Assembly (NCBI RefSeq): GCF_021216655.1
Contig: NZ_CP080437.1
Location: 558,001-622,000 of the forward strand
Reading direction: 5' to 3'
Length of the DNA: 64,000 nt
From: Clavibacter michiganensis
GTDB lineage: Bacteria > Actinomycetota > Actinomycetes > Actinomycetales > Microbacteriaceae
Shown here: piece after piece, positions 2,155 to 15,887 of the stretch
Layout of the letters: every line of letters starts with the position of its first letter
How positions within the stretch are numbered: the stretch's first letter is position 1
Position numbers and translations under genes: made by a program
Notes under the pieces: model-generated
The model's database searches: none
What the model was told of the DNA's origin: nothing
The model's input: the letters and a program-made list of their open reading frames with translations, nothing else

Positions 2155-3102
2155 ATGGCCGTCGTCACCATCCGCCAGCTGCTCGACTGCGGCGTCCACT
2201 TCGGTCACCCGAAGACGCGCTGGAACCCGAAGATGAAGCGCTTCATCTTCACCGAGCGCTCCGGCATCTACATCATCGACCTGCAGCAGTCGCTGGCCCT
2301 CATCGACAAGGCGTACGACTTCGTCAAGGAGACGGTCGCCCACGGCGGCACCATCCTCTTCGTCGGCACCAAGAAGCAGGCGCAGGAGTCCATCGCCGAG
2401 CAGGCGCAGCGCGTCGGCCAGCCCTACGTCAACCAGCGCTGGCTGGGCGGTCTGCTGACCAACTTCCAGACCGTGCACAAGCGCCTCAACCGCCTCAAGG
2501 AGCTCGACCTCGTCGACTTCGACGACACGACGCGCGGCTTCACCAAGAAGGAGCTCCTCATCCAGCGTCGCGAGCGCGACAAGCTGGAGAAGAGCCTCGG
2601 TGGCATCCGGAACCTGACCAAGACGCCGTCGGCGATGTGGGTCGTGGACACCAAGAAGGAGCACCTCGCCATCGACGAGGCGCGCAAGCTCGGCATCCCG
2701 GTCATCGGCATCCTCGACACCAACTGCGACCCGGACGAGGTCCAGTACCCGATCCCGGGCAACGACGACGCGATCCGCTCCGTCGCGCTGCTGACGCGCA
2801 TCATCGCCGACGCCGCGGCCGAGGGCCTCATCCAGCGCCACCAGAAGCCCGACGCCGAGGGCTCCGCCCCGGCCGAGCCGCTGGCCGACTGGGAGCGCGA
2901 GCTGCTCGAGCAGGGCGACGCCGCGAAGGCGGAGCTGCCCGTCGAGGAGAACGACGTCGACGCCGAGGTCTCCGCCAAGAACGAGGCGAAGTCCGAGGAC
3001 GAGGTCGCCGCGCCCGTCCACGCCCCCGAGTCCGACGACGCCACCGAGGCGAAGATCGAGGCCGAGGCGACCGAGTCCGAGAAGGCTCCCGTCTCCGAGT
3101 AG
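2155..3102 (+). CDS. rpsB: 30S ribosomal protein S2
   Basis: 315-residue S2 protein of the small ribosomal subunit. The N-terminus ([21 protein letters not shown]) and the segments [21 protein letters not shown] and [15 protein letters not shown] are the standard S2 core, ending near residue 230. Beyond it runs a Glu/Asp/Ala-rich acidic tail of about 65-80 residues, longer than in E. coli S2 but common in actinobacteria. The ATG at 2155 is preceded by AGGAG at 2142-2146. Codon use is strongly biased to C/G-ending codons with no GGATCC word, unlike most of the window, as expected for a highly expressed gene. It is followed by an 18-bp hairpin and tsf. Confidence 0.97.
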
Positions 3103-3120
3103 TCCGACCACACGCACCAT

Positions 3121-3159
3121 CCCGACGGGCGGGCGCGGGTTCCGCGCCCGCCCGTCGGG
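3121..3159 (+). terminator. rpsB-tsf intergenic hairpin
   Basis: Perfect 18-bp stem (CCCGACGGGCGGGCGCGG with its complement) and a three-base loop, without a U-run. It lies 18 bases after the rpsB stop and before the tsf ribosome site. It may be a terminator or a partial terminator/RNA stabiliser that sets the S2:EF-Ts ratio, because no clear tsf promoter is visible after it. Confidence 0.75.
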
Positions 3160-3212
3160 CACTCACCACCGGGAGACCCCCGGATCATCACCTACAGAAG
3201 GAGTCCATGAGC

Positions 3213-5584: not shown

Positions 5585-6625
5585 GTGGCCAGCCCCGAGG
5601 ATCCCGCCGAGCGGGCGCCCGTCGTGCCGCCCGCGTCAGGCCCCGACGGCGCTCCGCGGATCCGGCGGCACCGCGGCCGCGTGACGCGCGCCGAGTTCGA
5701 GGCGCAGGTCCAGGCCACGCGTGCCGACCTGACGGCGCAGGTCCGGGCCACCCGCGCCTCGCTCGAGGCGACGAACGACCGCATCAACGCCCGCACGGGG
5801 CGCAACCTGCTCTTCGCGGTGAGCGTCGGCCTCCTCCTCGGCGGGGTCGTCCTCGTGAGCCTCGTCGTCGTCAAGCAGCTCTTCCTGGTCATCGCCGTCG
5901 CCCTCGTCGCATTCACCGCGTACGAGCTCGCCACCGCGCTGCGCCAGGCCGGCCGCCGAGTGCCGCGCGTGGGCTCGGTGATCGCGGTCGTCGTGCTCAT
6001 GCCGATCACGTACTTCGGACGGCCCGACGGGCAATGGCTGGGCCTCCTCGGGGCCATGGGCTTCGTCGCGCTCTGGCGCGTGGTGGAGCAGGCGCTGCCC
6101 GCCCGGCGGACGTCCGCGCGCGCGCTCGTCGGCGACATCGGCTCGAGCGTCTTCCTGCTCGGCTACGTGGGGCTGCTCGGCTCCTTCGCCGTGCTGCTCA
6201 CCGCGGGCGACGGCGGCGAGTGGTGGACCCTGGCCTTCCTCATCCTCGTGGTCTGCTGCGACACGGGTGCGTACGTCGCGGGGCTCAACTTCGGGAAGCA
6301 CCCCATGGCGCCCACGATCAGCCCCAAGAAGACGTGGGAGGGCTTCGCCGGCGCGGTCGTCGCCGCGGTGCTCGCCGGGATCCTGCTCTCGCTGTTCATG
6401 ATCCAGCAGGAGTGGTGGTTCGGCGTCGTGCTCGGCCTCGTCATCGTGGTGACCGCGACCCTGGGCGACCTGGCCGAGTCGCTCATCAAGCGCGACCTCG
6501 GCGTCAAGGACATCAGCTCCTGGCTGCCGGGCCACGGCGGGTTCCTCGACCGCCTCGACTCCGTGCTGCCGTCCGCGGCGGTGGCCTATGCGCTGTTCCT
6601 CATCGTCACGGGAGCTTCCTCGTAG
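5585..6625 (+). CDS. cdsA: phosphatidate cytidylyltransferase
   Basis: 346-residue membrane enzyme converting phosphatidate and CTP to CDP-diacylglycerol, the precursor of all phospholipids. The first 70 or so residues are soluble and charged, with a helix containing repeated QA/VRATRA motifs (about residues 36-65). About eight membrane segments follow from residue 76. The C-terminal family signature is clear: CDTGAYVAGLNFGKHPMAP, SPKKTWEGF, and GDLAESLIKRDLGVKD followed by PGHGGFLDRLDS with the catalytic Asp residues. The GTG at 5585 immediately follows the frr stop, and its ribosome site must lie inside frr (GAGGTCTAG region). The N-terminal extension is longer than in E. coli CdsA but usual in actinobacteria. 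Confidence 0.94.
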   Translation: MASPEDPAERAPVVPPASGPDGAPRIRRHRGRVTRAEFEAQVQATRADLTAQVRATRASLEATNDRINARTGRNLLFAVSVGLLLGGVVLVSLVVVKQLFLVIAVALVAFTAYELATALRQAGRRVPRVGSVIAVVVLMPITYFGRPDGQWLGLLGAMGFVALWRVVEQALPARRTSARALVGDIGSSVFLLGYVGLLGSFAVLLTAGDGGEWWTLAFLILVVCCDTGAYVAGLNFGKHPMAPTISPKKTWEGFAGAVVAAVLAGILLSLFMIQQEWWFGVVLGLVIVVTATLGDLAESLIKRDLGVKDISSWLPGHGGFLDRLDSVLPSAAVAYALFLIVTGASS

Positions 6626-6628
6626 GAT
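6623..6628 (+). promoter_or_regulatory. -10 of DivIVA-repeat gene (leaderless)
   Basis: TAGGAT overlapping the cdsA stop codon, seven bases before the ATG at 6636. Confidence 0.5.
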
Positions 6629-6635
6629 GTCCCGG

Positions 6636-7181
6636 ATGACCACCACCTTCCCGAGCGCCGGGCGCCGCGAGCGCGGCTACGACCCGGACCAGGTCGACGC
6701 CTTCCTGCGCGACGCGAGACGCTGCTACGACGACGAGGCCGACCGCTCCCTGACCTCCGAGACCATCCGCCGGGTGTCCTTCGACATGCGCCGCGGGGGC
6801 TACTCGGCCGCCGCCGTGGACCGCGTCCTCGAACGGCTGGAGGACGCGTTCGCCGTCCGGGAGCGCGACCGCACGGTGGCCCGGGTAGGCACCGACGCGT
6901 GGAACGCCGAGGCCCGACGCGCGGCGCAGGAGATCCTCGACCGGGTCAGCCGGCCCACGGGGGAGCGGTTCGACCGGGCCGGGTTCCTGACGACCGGGTA
7001 CGACCGACGCGAGGTGGATCGCTTCGCGGACCGCGTCGCCAAGTACTTCCGGGGCACCAAGCCCATGAGCGTCGACGACGTGCGCACGGTGGCGTTCCAC
7101 CCGCGCCGCGGCGGGTACCGGGAGGCGCAGGTCGACCTGCTGCTGGACGCCGTCATCGACGTCATGAACGCCGTCCGCTGA
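6636..7181 (+). CDS. DivIVA-motif repeat protein
   Basis: 181-residue soluble protein built from four copies of the short motif Gly-Tyr-(D/S/R)-x3-Val-Asp: GYDPDQVDAFL, GYSAAAVDRVL, GYDRREVDRFA and GYREAQVDLLL. The first two and last two form a pair, each separated by a segment ending in RRGGY, so the protein is an internal duplication. The motif is the start of the DivIVA/GpsB membrane-targeting domain, and a family of DivIVA-domain repeat proteins is known in actinobacteria; a role in cell-pole or division-site biology is inference. There is no coiled-coil tail as in true DivIVA. The start at 6636 is chosen because TAGGAT lies seven bases upstream (leaderless pattern); 6627 is an in-frame alternative. 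It begins right after cdsA. Confidence 0.75.
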   Translation: MTTTFPSAGRRERGYDPDQVDAFLRDARRCYDDEADRSLTSETIRRVSFDMRRGGYSAAAVDRVLERLEDAFAVRERDRTVARVGTDAWNAEARRAAQEILDRVSRPTGERFDRAGFLTTGYDRREVDRFADRVAKYFRGTKPMSVDDVRTVAFHPRRGGYREAQVDLLLDAVIDVMNAVR

Positions 7182-10881: not shown

Positions 10882-11940
10882 TCAGCGCTCGTTCTGCAGC
10901 GGGACCGCGACCTGGCGGATGATGAGCAGCACGGCGGCGGCCACCGGCACCGCGATGAGCGCGCCGAGCACCCCGAGCAGCGTCCCGCCCGTGAGCGCCG
11001 CGATGACGACCACGACGCCGGGCACCTTGACCGCCCGGTTCATGATGTTCGGGCTCAGGACGTAGGCCTCGATCTGCATGTAGACGAGGTAGTAGATCGC
11101 CACCGCGATCCACGTGTTCATCGACTCCGGCAGCAGCACGATCTGGCCGAGCACGATGAGCGCCGAGCCCGTGATCGTGCCCACGAGCGGCAGCAGCGAG
11201 AACAGGAACGCGATGAACGCCCAGACCGCGGGCAGCGCGGCCCCGACGATGCTGAGGTAGACGAAGCTGAGCACGCCGTTGCAGAGCGCGAGGCCGACCT
11301 GGCCCATGACGTAGCGGCCGACCGACTGGGTGATCTGCTCCGCGATGTCGGCGAAGCGCGCCCGGCGGGTGGCCGGCACGAGCTTGTACAGGCCGCTCTT
11401 GAAGGAGTTGAGCGAGGCCGTGAAGTACATCGTGAGGATCACGACGATCACGAGGCCGAAGAGGAAGTTGCCGATCGTGAAGGCCACGGTGATGACGTTG
11501 CCCGTGATGGTCGCGACGTTCGAGGCGTTGGAGAGGTACTGGACGAGCTGGTCGGCGCCGGTCTGCACGTCGAAGACCTCGCGCGGCACGAACGACTGCA
11601 GGTTCTCGATGAACTGGTCGCCGCTCACGCTCTGCGCGTACTGGACGATCTGGGTGACGAGGGCGCTCGCCTGGTTCACGACGACGGGGATGACCGCCAG
11701 CAGCACGCCGGCGAGGGAGCCGAGCAGCACCAGGAAGATGACGAGGATCGCGACCGGGCGCGGGACGCCCTTGCGCTCGAGGAAGGTCACGAGCGGGTCG
11801 ATGCCGAGGGCCAGGAAGATGGCCGTGCCCACGTAGGTGAGGACGGTGCCGAGCGACACGAGCGCGCCGCCGATGACGAGAGCGGTGAGCACGCCGAGAC
11901 CGGCCAGGAGGCCGAGGCGGTAGGGGTTCTGGATCTTCAC
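10882..11940 (-). CDS. AI-2E family transporter (TqsA/YdbT-like permease)
   Basis: 352-residue polytopic protein with about eight hydrophobic segments: a pair at residues 10-45, one near 65-85, a large loop containing a short helix (about 90-145), then segments to residue 345. The late motifs PLVGTITGSALIVLGQI and AYVLSPNIMNRAVKVPGVVVVIAALTGG match the AI-2 exporter superfamily (DUF20). Members export autoinducer-2 or act as Na+/H+ antiporters; the substrate here is unknown. The GTG at 11940 has a weak GAGAAG upstream. It starts 29 bases after the coiled-coil gene on the same strand, so probably shares its transcript. Confidence 0.86.
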   Translation of the reverse strand: MKIQNPYRLGLLAGLGVLTALVIGGALVSLGTVLTYVGTAIFLALGIDPLVTFLERKGVPRPVAILVIFLVLLGSLAGVLLAVIPVVVNQASALVTQIVQYAQSVSGDQFIENLQSFVPREVFDVQTGADQLVQYLSNASNVATITGNVITVAFTIGNFLFGLVIVVILTMYFTASLNSFKSGLYKLVPATRRARFADIAEQITQSVGRYVMGQVGLALCNGVLSFVYLSIVGAALPAVWAFIAFLFSLLPLVGTITGSALIVLGQIVLLPESMNTWIAVAIYYLVYMQIEAYVLSPNIMNRAVKVPGVVVVIAALTGGTLLGVLGALIAVPVAAAVLLIIRQVAVPLQNER

Positions 11941-11969: not shown

Positions 11970-13745
11970 TCAGCGCGCGGTGCGGGTTTCGTCGTCGTCG
12001 GATGAGGAGTCGTCCGCCTGGGTCAGCACGCCGCGGACGTTCTCGAGGTACGCGGCCACCGACTCGCGCTCGATCCTAATGCGGTCGAGGCGCTCCTCCG
12101 CGTCGGCGAGGGTCTCGCGTGCGCGGCGCTCCGCGTCGGAGACGGTGTCGCGGGCGCGGCGCTCCGCGTCGGCGATGGCGGCTCGCGCGTCGTGGTCGGC
12201 GTCCTCCCGGGCCTTCCGCGCGGCGTCGCGGCTCTCCTTCGCGAGCGCCTCCGCCTCCTCGCGCGTGGAGGCGAGGAGAGCGGTGACCTCCTGCAGCCGC
12301 ACCTCCGCCTCGCCGAGGTAGGCGGCCGTGCGCTCGGCGGCCTCGCGCTGGCGCTCGGCTGCGTCGCGGGCGTCGTGGTCGCGACGGGCGGTGATCTCGG
12401 CGTCGAGGTCGAGGTGGCCCTGCTCGATCTCGCGGCTGAGCAGCAGGCGCGCCTCGTCGGCCTCCGCCGCGAGCTCGCGCCGGGTCTCGGCGGCCTCGCG
12501 CTCGAGACGGAGGCGCTCGGCCTCCCGACGGTCGGCTTCGAGCGCCTCGGCCTCGGCGATCTCCCGCTCGAGAGCCGCCCGGGCGGTGACGGCCTCCAGC
12601 TCGAGCTGGGCGCGCGTCGCCCGGGTCTCGCGCTCCAGGCGCTCGGTGCCCTGGGCGACGTCGCGGGCGAGGTCGGTGCGGGCCTCCTCGACATCTCGCG
12701 CGAGGTCGCCGCGCGCGGTCGCCAGCTCCAGCTCGAGCGCCTCGCGCGTCTCGGCGATCTCCCGCTCGAGGGCGGCGCGGGTCTCCTCCACGTCGCGGTC
12801 GAACGCCGTGCGCTCCGCGTGGATCCGTCGGTCGAAGTCGTCGCGCGAGCCCTGCAGCTCGCGGTCCCAGTCGGTGCGCGCCTGCTCGATCTCGCGGTCG
12901 AGGTCGGCGCGGGTCTGCTCCTCGAGCTGGGTGAGGGCGATGCGCCGGGTCTCCTCGTCGAGCCGCAGCCGCTCCTCCGTCTCCCGCATGTCGCGGTCGA
13001 GCTCCGCGCGCTCCTCGGCGACCGACTCGTCGTGCCGGGCACGCGCGTCGGCGAGCTCGCGCTCGAGGGCGCCTCGGGCGAGGACGGTGTCGCGGGCCAG
13101 GTCGGCGGCGTCGCGGCGCGCCTCGTCGGTCTCGCGGTCCACGCGCGCGCGCAGCTCGGCGACCTCGCGGGCCGCCTCGGCGCGCTGGGCGTCCGTCTCG
13201 CGCTCCGCGGTGGCGCGCAGGTCGGCCACCTCGGTGCGCGTGCGGAGGAGGAGGGCGGCGGCCTCGCGCTCGGCGTCGCTGCGGAGGCCCTCGGCGCGGT
13301 CGTCCGCTCGCTCGTGCAGGTCGTCGGCCTCGCGGCGCGCGGCGTCGAGGATCTGCGCGGCCTGCGCTCGCGCGGAGTCCACGAGGTGGCGGGCGGTCGC
13401 CTCGGCCTCGGCGCGCTGCGCGTCCGTCTCCTCCTGCGTGGCGCGGCGGAGCCGGCCGGCGTCCGCGTCCGCCTGGGCGACCAACCGGGTCGACTGCTCC
13501 TCGGCGACGCGGAGCGTGGCCTCGAGCCGGCTGCCGAGCCCGGCGAACGTGGGGCTGCCGACCTCATCCAGCTCGTCGCGCAGCTCCTGCTCGCTGCGGC
13601 GGAGGCGCTCGGCCTCGGCACGCAGCTCGGCGCCCTGCTGGTTCGAGCGGATCAGCTCGCGGCGCAGGTCGGCGACGGCCCGGTCGACCTCGTCGCGGTT
13701 GTAGCCGCGCATGGCGGGGCTGAACGGCGTGTCGTCGTGGGGCAC
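11970..13745 (-). CDS. giant hendecad coiled-coil protein with DivIVA-like N-terminus
   Basis: 591 residues, no signal peptide or membrane segment. Residues 1-40 contain FSPAMRGYNRDEVDRAVADL, the Gly-Tyr...Val-Asp start of DivIVA-type membrane-targeting domains. From Leu74 to residue 568 the whole protein reads as 45 consecutive 11-residue units without a single insertion or deletion (for example DRDVEETRAAL, EREIAETREAL, ELELATARGDL); a 23-residue acidic/polar tail follows. Eleven-residue repeats form long, nearly straight or right-handed coiled coils, so this should be a rod tens of nanometres long. By analogy with Scy/FilP/DivIVA polarity proteins of actinobacteria, a cytoskeletal or cell-pole scaffold is plausible but inferred. 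GTG 13745 has AAGGAG five bases upstream and TAGGAT about 55 bases upstream. Confidence 0.82.
   Translation of the reverse strand: MPHDDTPFSPAMRGYNRDEVDRAVADLRRELIRSNQQGAELRAEAERLRRSEQELRDELDEVGSPTFAGLGSRLEATLRVAEEQSTRLVAQADADAGRLRRATQEETDAQRAEAEATARHLVDSARAQAAQILDAARREADDLHERADDRAEGLRSDAEREAAALLLRTRTEVADLRATAERETDAQRAEAAREVAELRARVDRETDEARRDAADLARDTVLARGALERELADARARHDESVAEERAELDRDMRETEERLRLDEETRRIALTQLEEQTRADLDREIEQARTDWDRELQGSRDDFDRRIHAERTAFDRDVEETRAALEREIAETREALELELATARGDLARDVEEARTDLARDVAQGTERLERETRATRAQLELEAVTARAALEREIAEAEALEADRREAERLRLEREAAETRRELAAEADEARLLLSREIEQGHLDLDAEITARRDHDARDAAERQREAAERTAAYLGEAEVRLQEVTALLASTREEAEALAKESRDAARKAREDADHDARAAIADAERRARDTVSDAERRARETLADAEERLDRIRIERESVAAYLENVRGVLTQADDSSSDDDETRTAR
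12042..13526 (-). repeat. 45 x 33-base (11-residue) repeat array
   Basis: Nucleotide span coding residues 74-568 of the coiled-coil protein. Each 33-base unit encodes one hendecad. Units 17-34 most often begin (D/E)RE(I/V/L) and end in Leu/Phe/Trp; units 1-12 have Leu or Ile at position 4. The repeat is clear in protein and diverged in DNA. Confidence 0.8.
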
Positions 13746-13888: not shown

Positions 13889-14027
13889 TCGATGTCGTCG
13901 TCCGCCGCCGGTCCGCCTGCAGCACGGCGGAGCGTCGCGAGAGCACCCGTGCTCGTCGGCCGCCGCGGTCGTCATCCGATCGCTGCTCATGCGGCCGCCG
14001 CCCGCGACGACACGAGAGGAGACACCC

Positions 14028-15887
14028 GTGCGATTCGTCCTGGCGATCGCGACCTTCGTGGTCGCGGCCCTCATGATCGGGCTGGGGATCGCCCAGCACA
14101 CGTTCCTGGCGGGACCCGACCGCATCACCGCCGCCACGTCGTCCACCGGCGACGCCGCGTACGCGATCGTCGACGGGAAGACGCTCAACGCGCACCCCGG
14201 CCTGCAGGACACGGTCGTCCGCGGCGACGGCGAGGTCTTCGCGGCCTACGGCCCCACCACGGACGTCGAGGCGTGGGTGGGCAGCAGCCCGTACACGCGC
14301 ATCGCCATGGACGACCAGGGCGCGCTGACCAGCCAGGTCGTGCAGCCGGAGGCGACCACGCCGACCCCCACGCCGAGCCCCACCGCGGGAGCCTCGGGCA
14401 CCGACGCGTCGGGCACGGCGGCCGCGGCGACCTCCACGGTGACCGATCCCCGCGGATCCGACCTCTGGCTCTCCGAGCAGACCGGCCAGGGCGAGGTGTC
14501 GCTCAGCACGCGCCTCCCGGACGACGTCAGCCTGATCCTCGCCACCGACGGGCAGGCGGCCGCGCCGGCCGACGTCGAGCTGTCCTGGCCGTCCGAGGGC
14601 GAGTCGCCCTGGGTCGTGCCGCTCGTGGTCGGCGGCATCGTGCTGCTCGTCGTCGGGCTCGTCCTCTACCTCCTCGCGCTCCGTCACCTGCGCCGCAGCC
14701 GCGGACCGCGCCGCAACCTGCCGCCGCGCGGCGGTCCGCGCATCCCGCGCATCGGCCCGGCAGCCCGTCGAGCGGCCTTGACGGCCGGCAGCGGCGCCGC
14801 ACCCGTGACGCCCCGCGGCCGTGGTCGTCGCAGCCGCATCGCGCTGCCCGTGCTCGTCGTCACCGGCCTCGCGCTCAGCGGGTGCACCGCCCAGGGCGCG
14901 CCGGCCGACCTCGCCGCTGGCGTGGGATCCACCGCGACGCCCACCCCGACCTCGTCGCTCGACGCCGCCCGCCAGGCGGAGGACGCGGATCCGCCCGTGG
15001 TGACGCAGGACCAGGCGGAGCGCATCGTGTCCCGCGTCTCCGAGGTCGCGACCGCGGCGGACCAGTCGCTCGACGCCGCCGCCCTCGCGCCCCGGTTCGC
15101 CGGACCGGCGCTCCAGGAGCGCACCTCGGACTACCAGGTGCGCAAGGCGAAGCCCGACATCGCCGCAGTCCCCGCGATCCCCGCCGGCGACCTGCAGCTG
15201 ACGCTGCCGCAGGCCACGGTGGCATGGCCGCGCACGGTCGCGGCCGTCGTCAAGGACCCGGACACGGAGGACGCGCCCACGCTGTCGCTCACGCTCGTGC
15301 AGGACAGCCCGCGCGACAACTACCGCGTGCTCTACGCGATGCCCATCTCGACCACGGCGGCGCTCCCGGACGTGGCGCCTGCGGCCATCGGCGCGGCCCG
15401 GCTCGCGGCGGACGTGAAGCTCCTGGCCGTGCAGCCGGACCAGCTCTCCGCGGCCTACGCGGACGTGCTGAACAACGGCGACGCCAGCCAGTACGCCGCC
15501 CTCTTCGACCCGACCGACGACGGCGTGCGGGCGCAGGACGCCAAGCGCAAGGTGGACTTCCCGGCGTCCATCGGGGAGACGGGCACGGTCGAGTTCGCGG
15601 CCACGGCAGACTCCGCCACTCCCGTCGCCATGTCGACCGTCGAGTCGGGGGCGCTCGTCAGCGTGACCGTGCAGCTCGGCATCGTCGCGAAGCCGACCGC
15701 GGAGGGCGCGAAGGTCAACGCGAACCCCGAGGTCCAGGCGATCACCGGGCTCACGGACTCGGCCAAGGGCTTCGACACCGTCCGCACGGCGCAGATGCTC
15801 ATGTACGTGCCTCCCGTGAACTCGGGCGAGAAGATCCGCCTGTACGCCTCCAGCACCCACATCACCTCGGCCAAGGAGCTCCCATGA
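14028..15887 (+). CDS. membrane protein with internal lipoprotein-like signal
   Basis: 619 residues in one open frame. A hydrophobic N-terminus (about 1-25) is followed by an extracytoplasmic domain (30-195) with a Thr/Pro/Ala stretch, a membrane segment (about 205-230), and a basic Pro/Arg/Gly linker (about 232-280). Then comes RIALPVLVVTGLALSGC, a textbook lipoprotein signal with the lipobox Cys at residue 286. The C-terminal part (about 290-619) is a soluble domain without recognisable motifs. The GTG at 14028 has GAGAGGAG upstream. An in-frame GTG at 14805 would give a free-standing lipoprotein starting TPRGRGRRS. Function unknown; the layout suggests either a fused pair or two products from one gene. 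The stop overlaps the next gene by ATGA. Confidence 0.72.
   Translation: MRFVLAIATFVVAALMIGLGIAQHTFLAGPDRITAATSSTGDAAYAIVDGKTLNAHPGLQDTVVRGDGEVFAAYGPTTDVEAWVGSSPYTRIAMDDQGALTSQVVQPEATTPTPTPSPTAGASGTDASGTAAAATSTVTDPRGSDLWLSEQTGQGEVSLSTRLPDDVSLILATDGQAAAPADVELSWPSEGESPWVVPLVVGGIVLLVVGLVLYLLALRHLRRSRGPRRNLPPRGGPRIPRIGPAARRAALTAGSGAAPVTPRGRGRRSRIALPVLVVTGLALSGCTAQGAPADLAAGVGSTATPTPTSSLDAARQAEDADPPVVTQDQAERIVSRVSEVATAADQSLDAAALAPRFAGPALQERTSDYQVRKAKPDIAAVPAIPAGDLQLTLPQATVAWPRTVAAVVKDPDTEDAPTLSLTLVQDSPRDNYRVLYAMPISTTAALPDVAPAAIGAARLAADVKLLAVQPDQLSAAYADVLNNGDASQYAALFDPTDDGVRAQDAKRKVDFPASIGETGTVEFAATADSATPVAMSTVESGALVSVTVQLGIVAKPTAEGAKVNANPEVQAITGLTDSAKGFDTVRTAQMLMYVPPVNSGEKIRLYASSTHITSAKELP

What the first reader, a model, noticed from the sequence alone, without database searches (positions are those of the whole stretch)
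11970..13745. A rod made of 45 uninterrupted 11-residue repeats behind a DivIVA-like head
The 591-residue protein divides exactly into a 73-residue head, 45 x 11 residues (74-568) and a 23-residue tail, with no insertion or deletion anywhere. Examples: DRDVEETRAAL, EREIAETREAL, ARDVEEARTDL. The core register drifts from position 4 in the first 12 units to positions 4 and 11 in units 13-34. Hendecads favour long straight or right-handed coiled coils, unlike heptad DivIVA or the 51-residue pattern described for Streptomyces Scy. Together with the Gly-Tyr...Val-Asp head this suggests a membrane- or pole-targeted cytoskeletal rod; the function is inferred.
Basis: partly seen in the sequence, partly recalled or inferred. 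Interest (0 to 1): 0.78.

Follow-up and report, generated by a model that had tools for sequence, protein, structure and literature searches.

The report
Register-locked eleven-residue rod, FilP family
This Clavibacter gene encodes a long bacterial filament-type rod built of eleven-residue repeats, and in the related proteins sampled the rod grows and shrinks almost only in whole eleven-residue steps, which points to a strictly kept helical register.

Summary
The minus-strand ORF 11970-13745 encodes 591 residues: DivIVA-like head, 495-residue rod with period near 11/3, acidic tail. The hendecad signal is strong mid-rod, borderline in 74-205 and not significant in the last 11 units. The protein is a FilP-family rod, sharing two N-terminal motifs and a C-terminal motif with FilP-sized proteins of a Streptomyces-like genus. 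FilP/Scy hendecads are in print, so the kind is known. What I did not find in print is the quantisation. Between two conserved ends, 83 sampled family rods measure 277 to 1010 residues, yet 67 of 70 distinct genus x length cases fall in two residue classes modulo 11. A tree of the ends needs at least 59 length changes but 4 register changes. Of 17 within-genus length differences 16 are multiples of 11. Seventeen Clavibacter copies have no rod indel. A second DivIVA-superfamily gene, PolyDIV, lies convergently 3-8 kb away in 99 of 99 genomes with both genes typed on one contig. Best reading: a dimeric, straight, roughly 80 nm cytoskeletal rod whose ends assemble and whose length changes by whole hendecads.

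The parts
11970..13745 (-). FilP-family rod protein, 591 aa, GTG start
   Evidence: ORF list; conserved start, Shine-Dalgarno and coding pattern; one match in the genome
13751..13756 (-). Shine-Dalgarno-like AAGGAG, 5 nt before the GTG
   Evidence: sequence printed
13683..13706 (-). first conserved motif, GYNRDEVD (residues 14-21), DivIVA-like domain
   Evidence: TIGR03544 22.4 bits against a cut-off of 22 and 25.9 bits; invariant R13 G14 Y15 V20 D21 in nine family heads; PDB profile hits to GpsB 4ug3, DivIVA 2wuj and Wag31 6lfa
13491..13556 (-). second conserved motif, residues 64-85, border between head coil and rod; helix break at residues 63-64 in the model
   Evidence: alignment; FilP-size proteins; AlphaFold2 model
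12042..13526 (-). rod, 45 x 11 residues (74-568)
   Evidence: Fourier and unit table; continuous helix 65-579 in the model
12405..13130 (-). most regular hendecad stretch by composition of units, 13-34 (residues 206-447)
   Evidence: ILVFM power 13.3 at 5.5 and 13.1 at 3.67; R/K 20.1 at 2.75; position table
12021..12074 (-). conserved C-terminal anchor, residues 558-575
   Evidence: found in 98 of 103 parsed rods; similar motif in FilP-size proteins
11973..12041 (-). acidic tail, residues 569-591; the only part with indels among 17 Clavibacter copies
6588..7181 (+). PolyDIV gene (tandem DivIVA-like domains), convergent neighbour
   Evidence: TIGR03543 200.8 bits against a cut-off of 154.2; convergent within 12 kb in 99 of 99 typed genomes with both on one contig
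10882..11940 (-). AI-2E family transporter, gene directly downstream of the rod gene
   Evidence: PF01594 2.4e-55

Best explanation
The gene is the single FilP-family (intermediate-filament-like) protein found in this Clavibacter genome. Two chains pair in parallel through the DivIVA-like head and a short heptad coil. They then continue as a nearly straight hendecad coiled coil of about 80 nm whose core alternates large residues with small ones (Ala/Thr/Ser/Gly), so that two helices can pack. The conserved ends carry the assembly contacts; the middle is a stiff spacer. Whole hendecads can be gained or lost because this keeps the hydrophobic stripe in phase, while other changes break the rod and are removed by selection. 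The likely role is stiffening or organising the growing pole or septum together with the genome's DivIVA and perhaps the neighbouring PolyDIV. Shown here: family membership by motifs, the periodicity, the register-locked length changes, the gene neighbourhood. Inferred: dimerisation, straightness, filament formation, location, partners.
For: Periodicity near 11/3. Conserved ends, variable middle: first to second motif is 55 residues in 66 of 70 cases, 62 (one heptad more) in 3, 91 in 1; second motif to C-terminal anchor modulo 11 is 2 in 46, 9 in 21, 6 in 2, 8 in 1. Among moduli 5-30 only 11 and 22 stand out; 62 of 69 in two classes in the first count, maximum 31 in 20000 random draws. At least 59 length changes but 4 register changes on a tree made without the rod. 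16 of 17 congener length differences, and 30 of 31 alignment gaps, are multiples of 11. No rod indel in 17 Clavibacter genomes. FilP kinship: the head profile finds FilP-size frames (322-380 aa, 83-87 bits) in 10 of 10 genomes of genus g125, next to frames of about 1290-1400 aa in 5 of them, and nothing else in the own genome; both N-terminal motifs and the C-terminal motif are shared. Helix 65-579 in the AlphaFold2 model. Literature: hendecads with Ala-rich cores in dimeric FilP/Scy (PMC9858780); a Janibacter FilP-family protein forms filaments in vitro (PMC2680258).
Against: No experiment on this protein. The model came from one sequence (mean pLDDT 73.7, pTM 0.24, under 50 around residues 453-460) and no dimer could be folded. 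The last 121 residues of the rod have a weak hendecad signal, and windows between about 353 and 495 are weak. Two paralogs in one genome (332 and 313 residues between first motif and anchor) differ by 19, not by a multiple of 11. Of 85 family genera sampled 15 gave no match (at most 14 candidates scored per genome), and in 12 of 12 genomes checked (10 genera) the gene is absent from its address, so the function is dispensable or replaceable. That genus g125 is Streptomyces rests on gene sizes and adjacency only.
Confidence: 0.65

Rival explanations
1. A divergent DivIVA/Wag31 polar scaffold that has lengthened its coil, rather than a FilP-family protein.
For: DivIVA-like head; weak NF050102 Wag31 hit, 24.5 bits.
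Against: 24.5 bits against the equivalog cut-off of 260. The genome has a separate, stronger DivIVA-domain gene elsewhere (55.6 bits), which the rod-head profile does not pick up at E <= 0.001. The second motif and the C-terminal motif match FilP-size proteins. None of the 10 neighbours scanned is ftsZ, sepF or yggT.
Confidence: 0.08
2. The 11-step ladder reflects a mutational bias (slippage or unequal exchange between 33-bp DNA repeats) rather than selection on the helical register.
For: 310 of 392 tandem-repeat arrays of period 15 or more in 83 loci have periods that are multiples of 33 bp (some loci include neighbouring genes); 33-bp arrays lie at two places in the window gene.
Against: By argument, not by test: slippage supplies 33-bp steps, but other in-frame indels should also arise over at least 59 length changes and are nearly missing. 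The DNA repeats may themselves be a by-product of the protein repeat. Both may act: bias makes the steps, selection keeps the register. I did not map indels against DNA repeats.
Confidence: 0.25
3. An ordinary low-complexity, charged helix; the 11-residue pattern is a by-product of composition without a structural constraint.
For: Simple composition, high GC (GC3 0.96); weak regularity in units 35-45.
Against: 100 shuffles with the same composition never reach the rod-wide peaks; register kept through at least 59 length changes; no rod indels in Clavibacter.
Confidence: 0.02

Closest known systems
FilP (Streptomyces; family of Bagchi 2008, PMC2680258)
   Same: Head motif, second motif at the start of the next coil, C-terminal motif, no other domain over its cut-off but the DivIVA-like one
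   Different: The three FilP-size proteins compared are about 310 aa with periods near 3.5 and 3.63 and one interval, 258 residues, in 3 of 3; this family has longer, nearly pure hendecad rods of widely varying length
Scy (Streptomyces)
   Same: Very long coil, DivIVA-like motif, hendecad-rich (PMC9858780)
   Different: The one Scy-size protein tested has period 51/14, and Scy starts at the motif according to PMC9858780; here near 11/3 and 12 residues before R13
DivIVA / Wag31
   Same: DivIVA-like head
   Different: Wag31 equivalog cut-off missed by far; separate DivIVA-domain gene in the genome
PolyDIV (PMC9858780; TIGR03543)
   Same: Same superfamily, gene neighbour
   Different: Tandem domains and no rod; it is the neighbour, not this protein

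Membership tests
FilP family | DivIVA-like motif RGY[DN]xxEVD near the N-terminus | tested here: met
   residues 13-21, RGYNRDEVD; TIGR03544 over its cut-off
FilP family | second conserved motif at the N-border of the second coiled-coil segment (hallmark pair in PMC2680258) | tested here: met
   shared with FilP-size proteins of genus g125; the letters of the paper's Fig. 2 were not seen
FilP family | rod without other known domains | tested here: met
   Pfam and NCBIfam scans show nothing over its cut-off but the DivIVA-like domain
FilP family | hendecad-containing coiled coil with small core residues (PMC9858780) | tested here: met
FilP family | filament formation in vitro | not testable with these tools
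   needs purified protein
FilP family | reported context of some clusters (crotonyl-CoA reductase, methylmalonyl-CoA epimerase); not a defining feature | tested here: not met
   none among the 10 neighbours scanned
Scy | 51-residue repeat (period 51/14) | tested here: not met
   power at 11/3 is 17.3, at 51/14 10.4, best 3.655; Scy-size protein 38.5 at 51/14
Scy | N-terminus truncated just before the motif; gene next to filP | tested here: not met
   12 residues before R13; one match in the genome
DivIVA/Wag31 | Wag31 equivalog score (NF050102, cut-off 260 bits) | tested here: not met
   24.5 bits
PolyDIV | two or more DivIVA-like domains in one chain | tested here: not met
   one domain hit in this protein; the neighbour at 6588-7181 has several

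The most novel reading that the evidence does not exclude
The rod is a register-locked molecular ruler: evolution sets its length in 1.6 nm hendecad clicks over roughly 40-150 nm while freezing both ends, so that rods pack side by side in register, with the convergently encoded PolyDIV as dedicated partner or cap.
Probability: 0.25. Interest if true: 0.75.

Novelty: new variant of a known kind. Interest (0 to 1): 0.52.

Why it matters
This is a natural series of 54 rod lengths with the same two ends, nearly all n x 11 plus one of two constants. It allows a direct test of how bacterial intermediate-filament-like proteins assemble: if ends or overlaps set the filament repeat, the repeat must change by about 1.6 nm per unit. 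It also gives a large set of probable hendecad rods, a coiled-coil type that PMC9858780 calls largely unexplored, and ties two DivIVA-superfamily proteins to one conserved locus.

Tried and rejected
DivIVA or Scy proper as the identity: rejected on scores and periodicity. Heptad rod: rejected (ILVFM power at 3.5 and 7 was 0.8 and 0.0). Foldseek of the AlphaFold2 model against the PDB: no match at E <= 0.001, uninformative for a single long helix. The rodless genomes might have hidden a shorter relative at the address: no such motif or coil frame in 12 of 12 loci. The protein-database search could not be made. A multimer model was not available. The same length statistic was not computed for another coiled-coil family, so there is no negative-control family. 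In the PDB profile search, coils unrelated in name scored near Wag31 (8qox 0.002, 2zqm 0.005), so only the GpsB and DivIVA hits carry weight.

Rows dropped: of 110 loci parsed, 7 gave no motif with the pattern used and 5 no C-terminal anchor (four from other families, one cut by a contig end); one more, from another family, was left out. One search prints 52 genera, but one label is the second copy of one genome, so 51. Three of the 7 were read later, from larger regions, and added; a protein in which the second motif was not matched was left out there. One of the 7 (L104) lies in two separate frames and was not counted. The 73 regions were picked by hand, at most two per genus, nearly always the first two that one search printed; they are not all 234. 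The 105 genomes are those typed from the printed parts, both cut by the tool; PolyDIV rows of genomes without a printed rod were not typed.

Full report
WHAT IS THERE. The minus-strand ORF 11970-13745 encodes 591 residues from a GTG. AAGGAG lies five bases upstream, and 16 Clavibacter relatives differ mostly at third codon positions (for example 44 synonymous and 9 non-synonymous codons in L002; 124 and 63 in L017). The genome gives one match to the protein. The five named relatives, 89-96% identical, are Clavibacter records.

PERIODICITY. Over residues 74-568, I/L/V/F/M shows peaks at 3.66, 10.85 and 5.5 residues (23.1, 19.2, 17.1) against a maximum of 9.2 in 100 shuffles; heptad periods are absent; power at exactly 11.00 is 4.0. 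Residues 206-447 give the clearest unit table; 74-205 is borderline; 448-568 is not significant alone. In 77-residue windows the signal is best around 243-385 and weak between about 353 and 495. The cut into 45 units gives a sensible hendecad: in units 13-34, position 11 is large in 20 of 22, position 7 small in 17, position 4 large in 13, position 8 Arg in 17. Positions 4, 7, 11 are thus the a, d, h core of a hendecad with one small core residue; units 1-12 use positions 1, 4, 8 (mostly small, Leu, Ala). The stripe slides by three positions along the rod, which is why the best period (3.655) is slightly below 11/3. A single-sequence AlphaFold2 model has helices 17-62 and 65-579 and a short one at 585-590 (mean pLDDT 73.7, low near 453-460).

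FAMILY. Pfam DivIVA is below its cut-off (15.1 against 28). TIGR03544 is just over it (22.4 against 22) and (25.9). Wag31 scores 24.5 against 260. A profile of nine heads has as invariant residues, among others, R-G-Y, V-D and the G-x-G of a second motif near residue 70. In 148 genomes of the class it matches 110. In genus g125 it finds FilP-size frames (322-380 aa, 83-87 bits) in 10 of 10 genomes, in 5 of them next to a frame of 1289-1399 aa: the arrangement of FilP and Scy as PMC4255298 and PMC9858780 describe it, so I take g125 to be Streptomyces, by inference. The three FilP-size proteins read share the second motif and the C-terminal motif with the window protein; the one Scy-size protein read has its main period at 51/14, not at 11/3. 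Structural relatives by sequence are GpsB 4ug3 (5e-6), DivIVA 2wuj (4e-4) and, weakly, Wag31 6lfa (3e-3). PMC9858780 (parts 1 to 3 of 4 read) defines the DivIVA-like domain shared by DivIVA, GpsB, FilP and Scy, describes hendecads in FilP and Scy with Ala-rich cores, and names PolyDIV. PMC2680258 (section 5 and passages read) defines the FilP family by a pair of N-terminal motifs and reports filaments of a Janibacter member. PMC4255298 (passages read) lists a Clavibacter among its genomes and calls FilP orthologues very widespread, so a FilP in Clavibacter may be implied there already. The kind is therefore known.

THE LADDER. Seventeen Clavibacter copies (the window's and 16 others, 88-98% identical to it) have no indel in residues 74-568; every indel begins at residues 582-586, in the tail. 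The family search gave matches in 234 of 299 genomes and 70 of 85 genera. I fetched 73 regions, at most two per genus, plus earlier ones. With both anchors found, 97 proteins of 51 genera give 69 distinct genus x interval cases from 313 to 1065 residues; modulo 11, 46 are in class 2, 16 in class 9, 7 elsewhere; in 20000 random draws the top two classes held at most 31 of 69. Of moduli 5 to 30 only 11 and its double 22 stand out. Splitting at the second motif (one Clavibacter row, three proteins added, one left out; 83 rows, 70 distinct cases), the head distance is 55 in 66, 62 in 3 and 91 in 1, and the rod distance modulo 11 is 2 in 46, 9 in 21, 6 in 2, 8 in 1. The heptad head coil thus mostly keeps its length, with one heptad more in three cases, while the rod changes by hendecads. 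Class 9 is class 2 plus 7 (or minus 4), steps that keep a helical stripe nearly in phase. Against the rule stand the three cases in classes 6 and 8, the seven outside the two classes in the whole-interval count, and two paralogs of one genome that differ by 19.

INDEPENDENCE. In all 17 genera with two sampled members of different length, the difference is an exact multiple of 11 in 16 (11 to 385 residues); the exception is 271 = 24 x 11 + 7. Of 31 alignment gaps 30 are multiples of 11; gap placement depends on penalties, total differences do not. A tree of the conserved ends without the rod needs at least 59 changes of length (54 distinct lengths, 83 rows) but only 4 changes of register class (shuffled mean 25.7; 24 of 81 inner branches are poorly supported). 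If register were free, about ten in eleven length changes would alter it.

HOW STEPS ARISE. In the DNA of 83 loci, 310 of 392 tandem arrays of period 15 or more have periods that are multiples of 33 bp (some loci include neighbouring genes, and the strongest single array lies outside the rod gene). Unequal exchange or slippage between 33-bp units is a natural source of whole-unit steps. Whether bias alone could make the ladder is left open as a rival.

LOCUS. Gene order is pyrH, frr, cdsA, PolyDIV, a transglycosylase-like gene, a Na/H exchanger, a 98-aa gene and a 244-aa gene (no Pfam family; called a hydrolase by eye), then convergently AI-2E transporter and rod, then one or two genes in the frame 13980-15884 without a Pfam family, and a thioredoxin-TPR gene (the exchanger is found in only some relatives). 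Of 13 family loci with a rod compared (L036-L046) keep PolyDIV on one side and the membrane gene and thioredoxin-TPR gene on the other; two of these 11 (L044, L045) show no AI-2E or hydrolase match; L047 (a second copy) and L048 differ. In the Streptomyces-like locus L188 only the 98-aa gene is found near. PolyDIV is in 295 of 299 genomes, 274 over the cut-off. In 105 genomes typed for both genes, 99 have both on one contig, and in 99 of 99 they are convergent and 3.2-7.9 kb apart; in 6 they are on different contigs. Twelve genomes of 10 genera without a rod match keep PolyDIV; in 11 the AI-2E and membrane genes lie 0.16-1.1 kb apart with no rod found between, in 1 the AI-2E match is missing too. 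So the rod is a removable module at a fixed address.

MECHANISM. Committed reading: a parallel dimer held by head and heptad coil, continued as a straight hendecad rod. At 0.1485 nm per residue (textbook value, recalled) the 495-residue rod is about 74 nm, the whole helix somewhat over 80 nm; family rods of 277-1010 residues would be about 41-150 nm. Frozen ends and a free-length middle suggest that ends do the work and the middle is spacer. PMC6599971 (passages read) reports Streptomyces FilP bundles with about 54-60 nm bands and proposes that N-termini lie in the major band, which fits end-determined assembly. Polar or septal location, filaments and contact with DivIVA or PolyDIV are inferred.

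NOVELTY. Searches of the held library: hendecad with DivIVA (1 paper, PMC9858780), hendecad with coiled coil (34 papers, 30 listed), PolyDIV (1 paper), FilP with Microbacteriaceae (0 papers), 'multiples of 11' or 'rod length' with coiled coil (13 papers, 10 listed, none on this by title). Most were seen as listings only. Walshaw 2010 and Holmes 2013 were not seen (Holmes not held), so an earlier mention of length steps there cannot be excluded. Verdict: known family, apparently new quantitative property.

Noticed in passing
window 6588-7181 (+): PolyDIV gene (TIGR03543) directly after pyrH-frr-cdsA, convergent with the rod gene in all 99 typed family genomes with both on one contig; two DivIVA-superfamily genes share one locus.
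   Followed up: yes
L164-L175 (12 genomes, 10 genera): The rod gene is absent from its conserved address while PolyDIV and most flanking genes remain; these genera could be compared for cell shape.
   Followed up: partly
L046 and L047 (one genome, G027): A small-genome family member carries two rod paralogs, about 15 kb apart, with 332 and 313 residues between the first motif and the C-terminal anchor.
   Followed up: no
L178 / L104 (G303): The rod of this genome lies in two separate frames (429 and 230 codons), broken gene or assembly error; described only.
   Followed up: no
L042-L045: A well-supported clade of four genera with long rods, all in register class 9; head distances are 62, 55, 62 and 91 residues.
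   Followed up: partly
L096, DNA 2839-3180: The strongest tandem array in the set has period 152 bp (98% match), not a multiple of 33; by its coordinates it lies beyond the rod gene.
   Followed up: no
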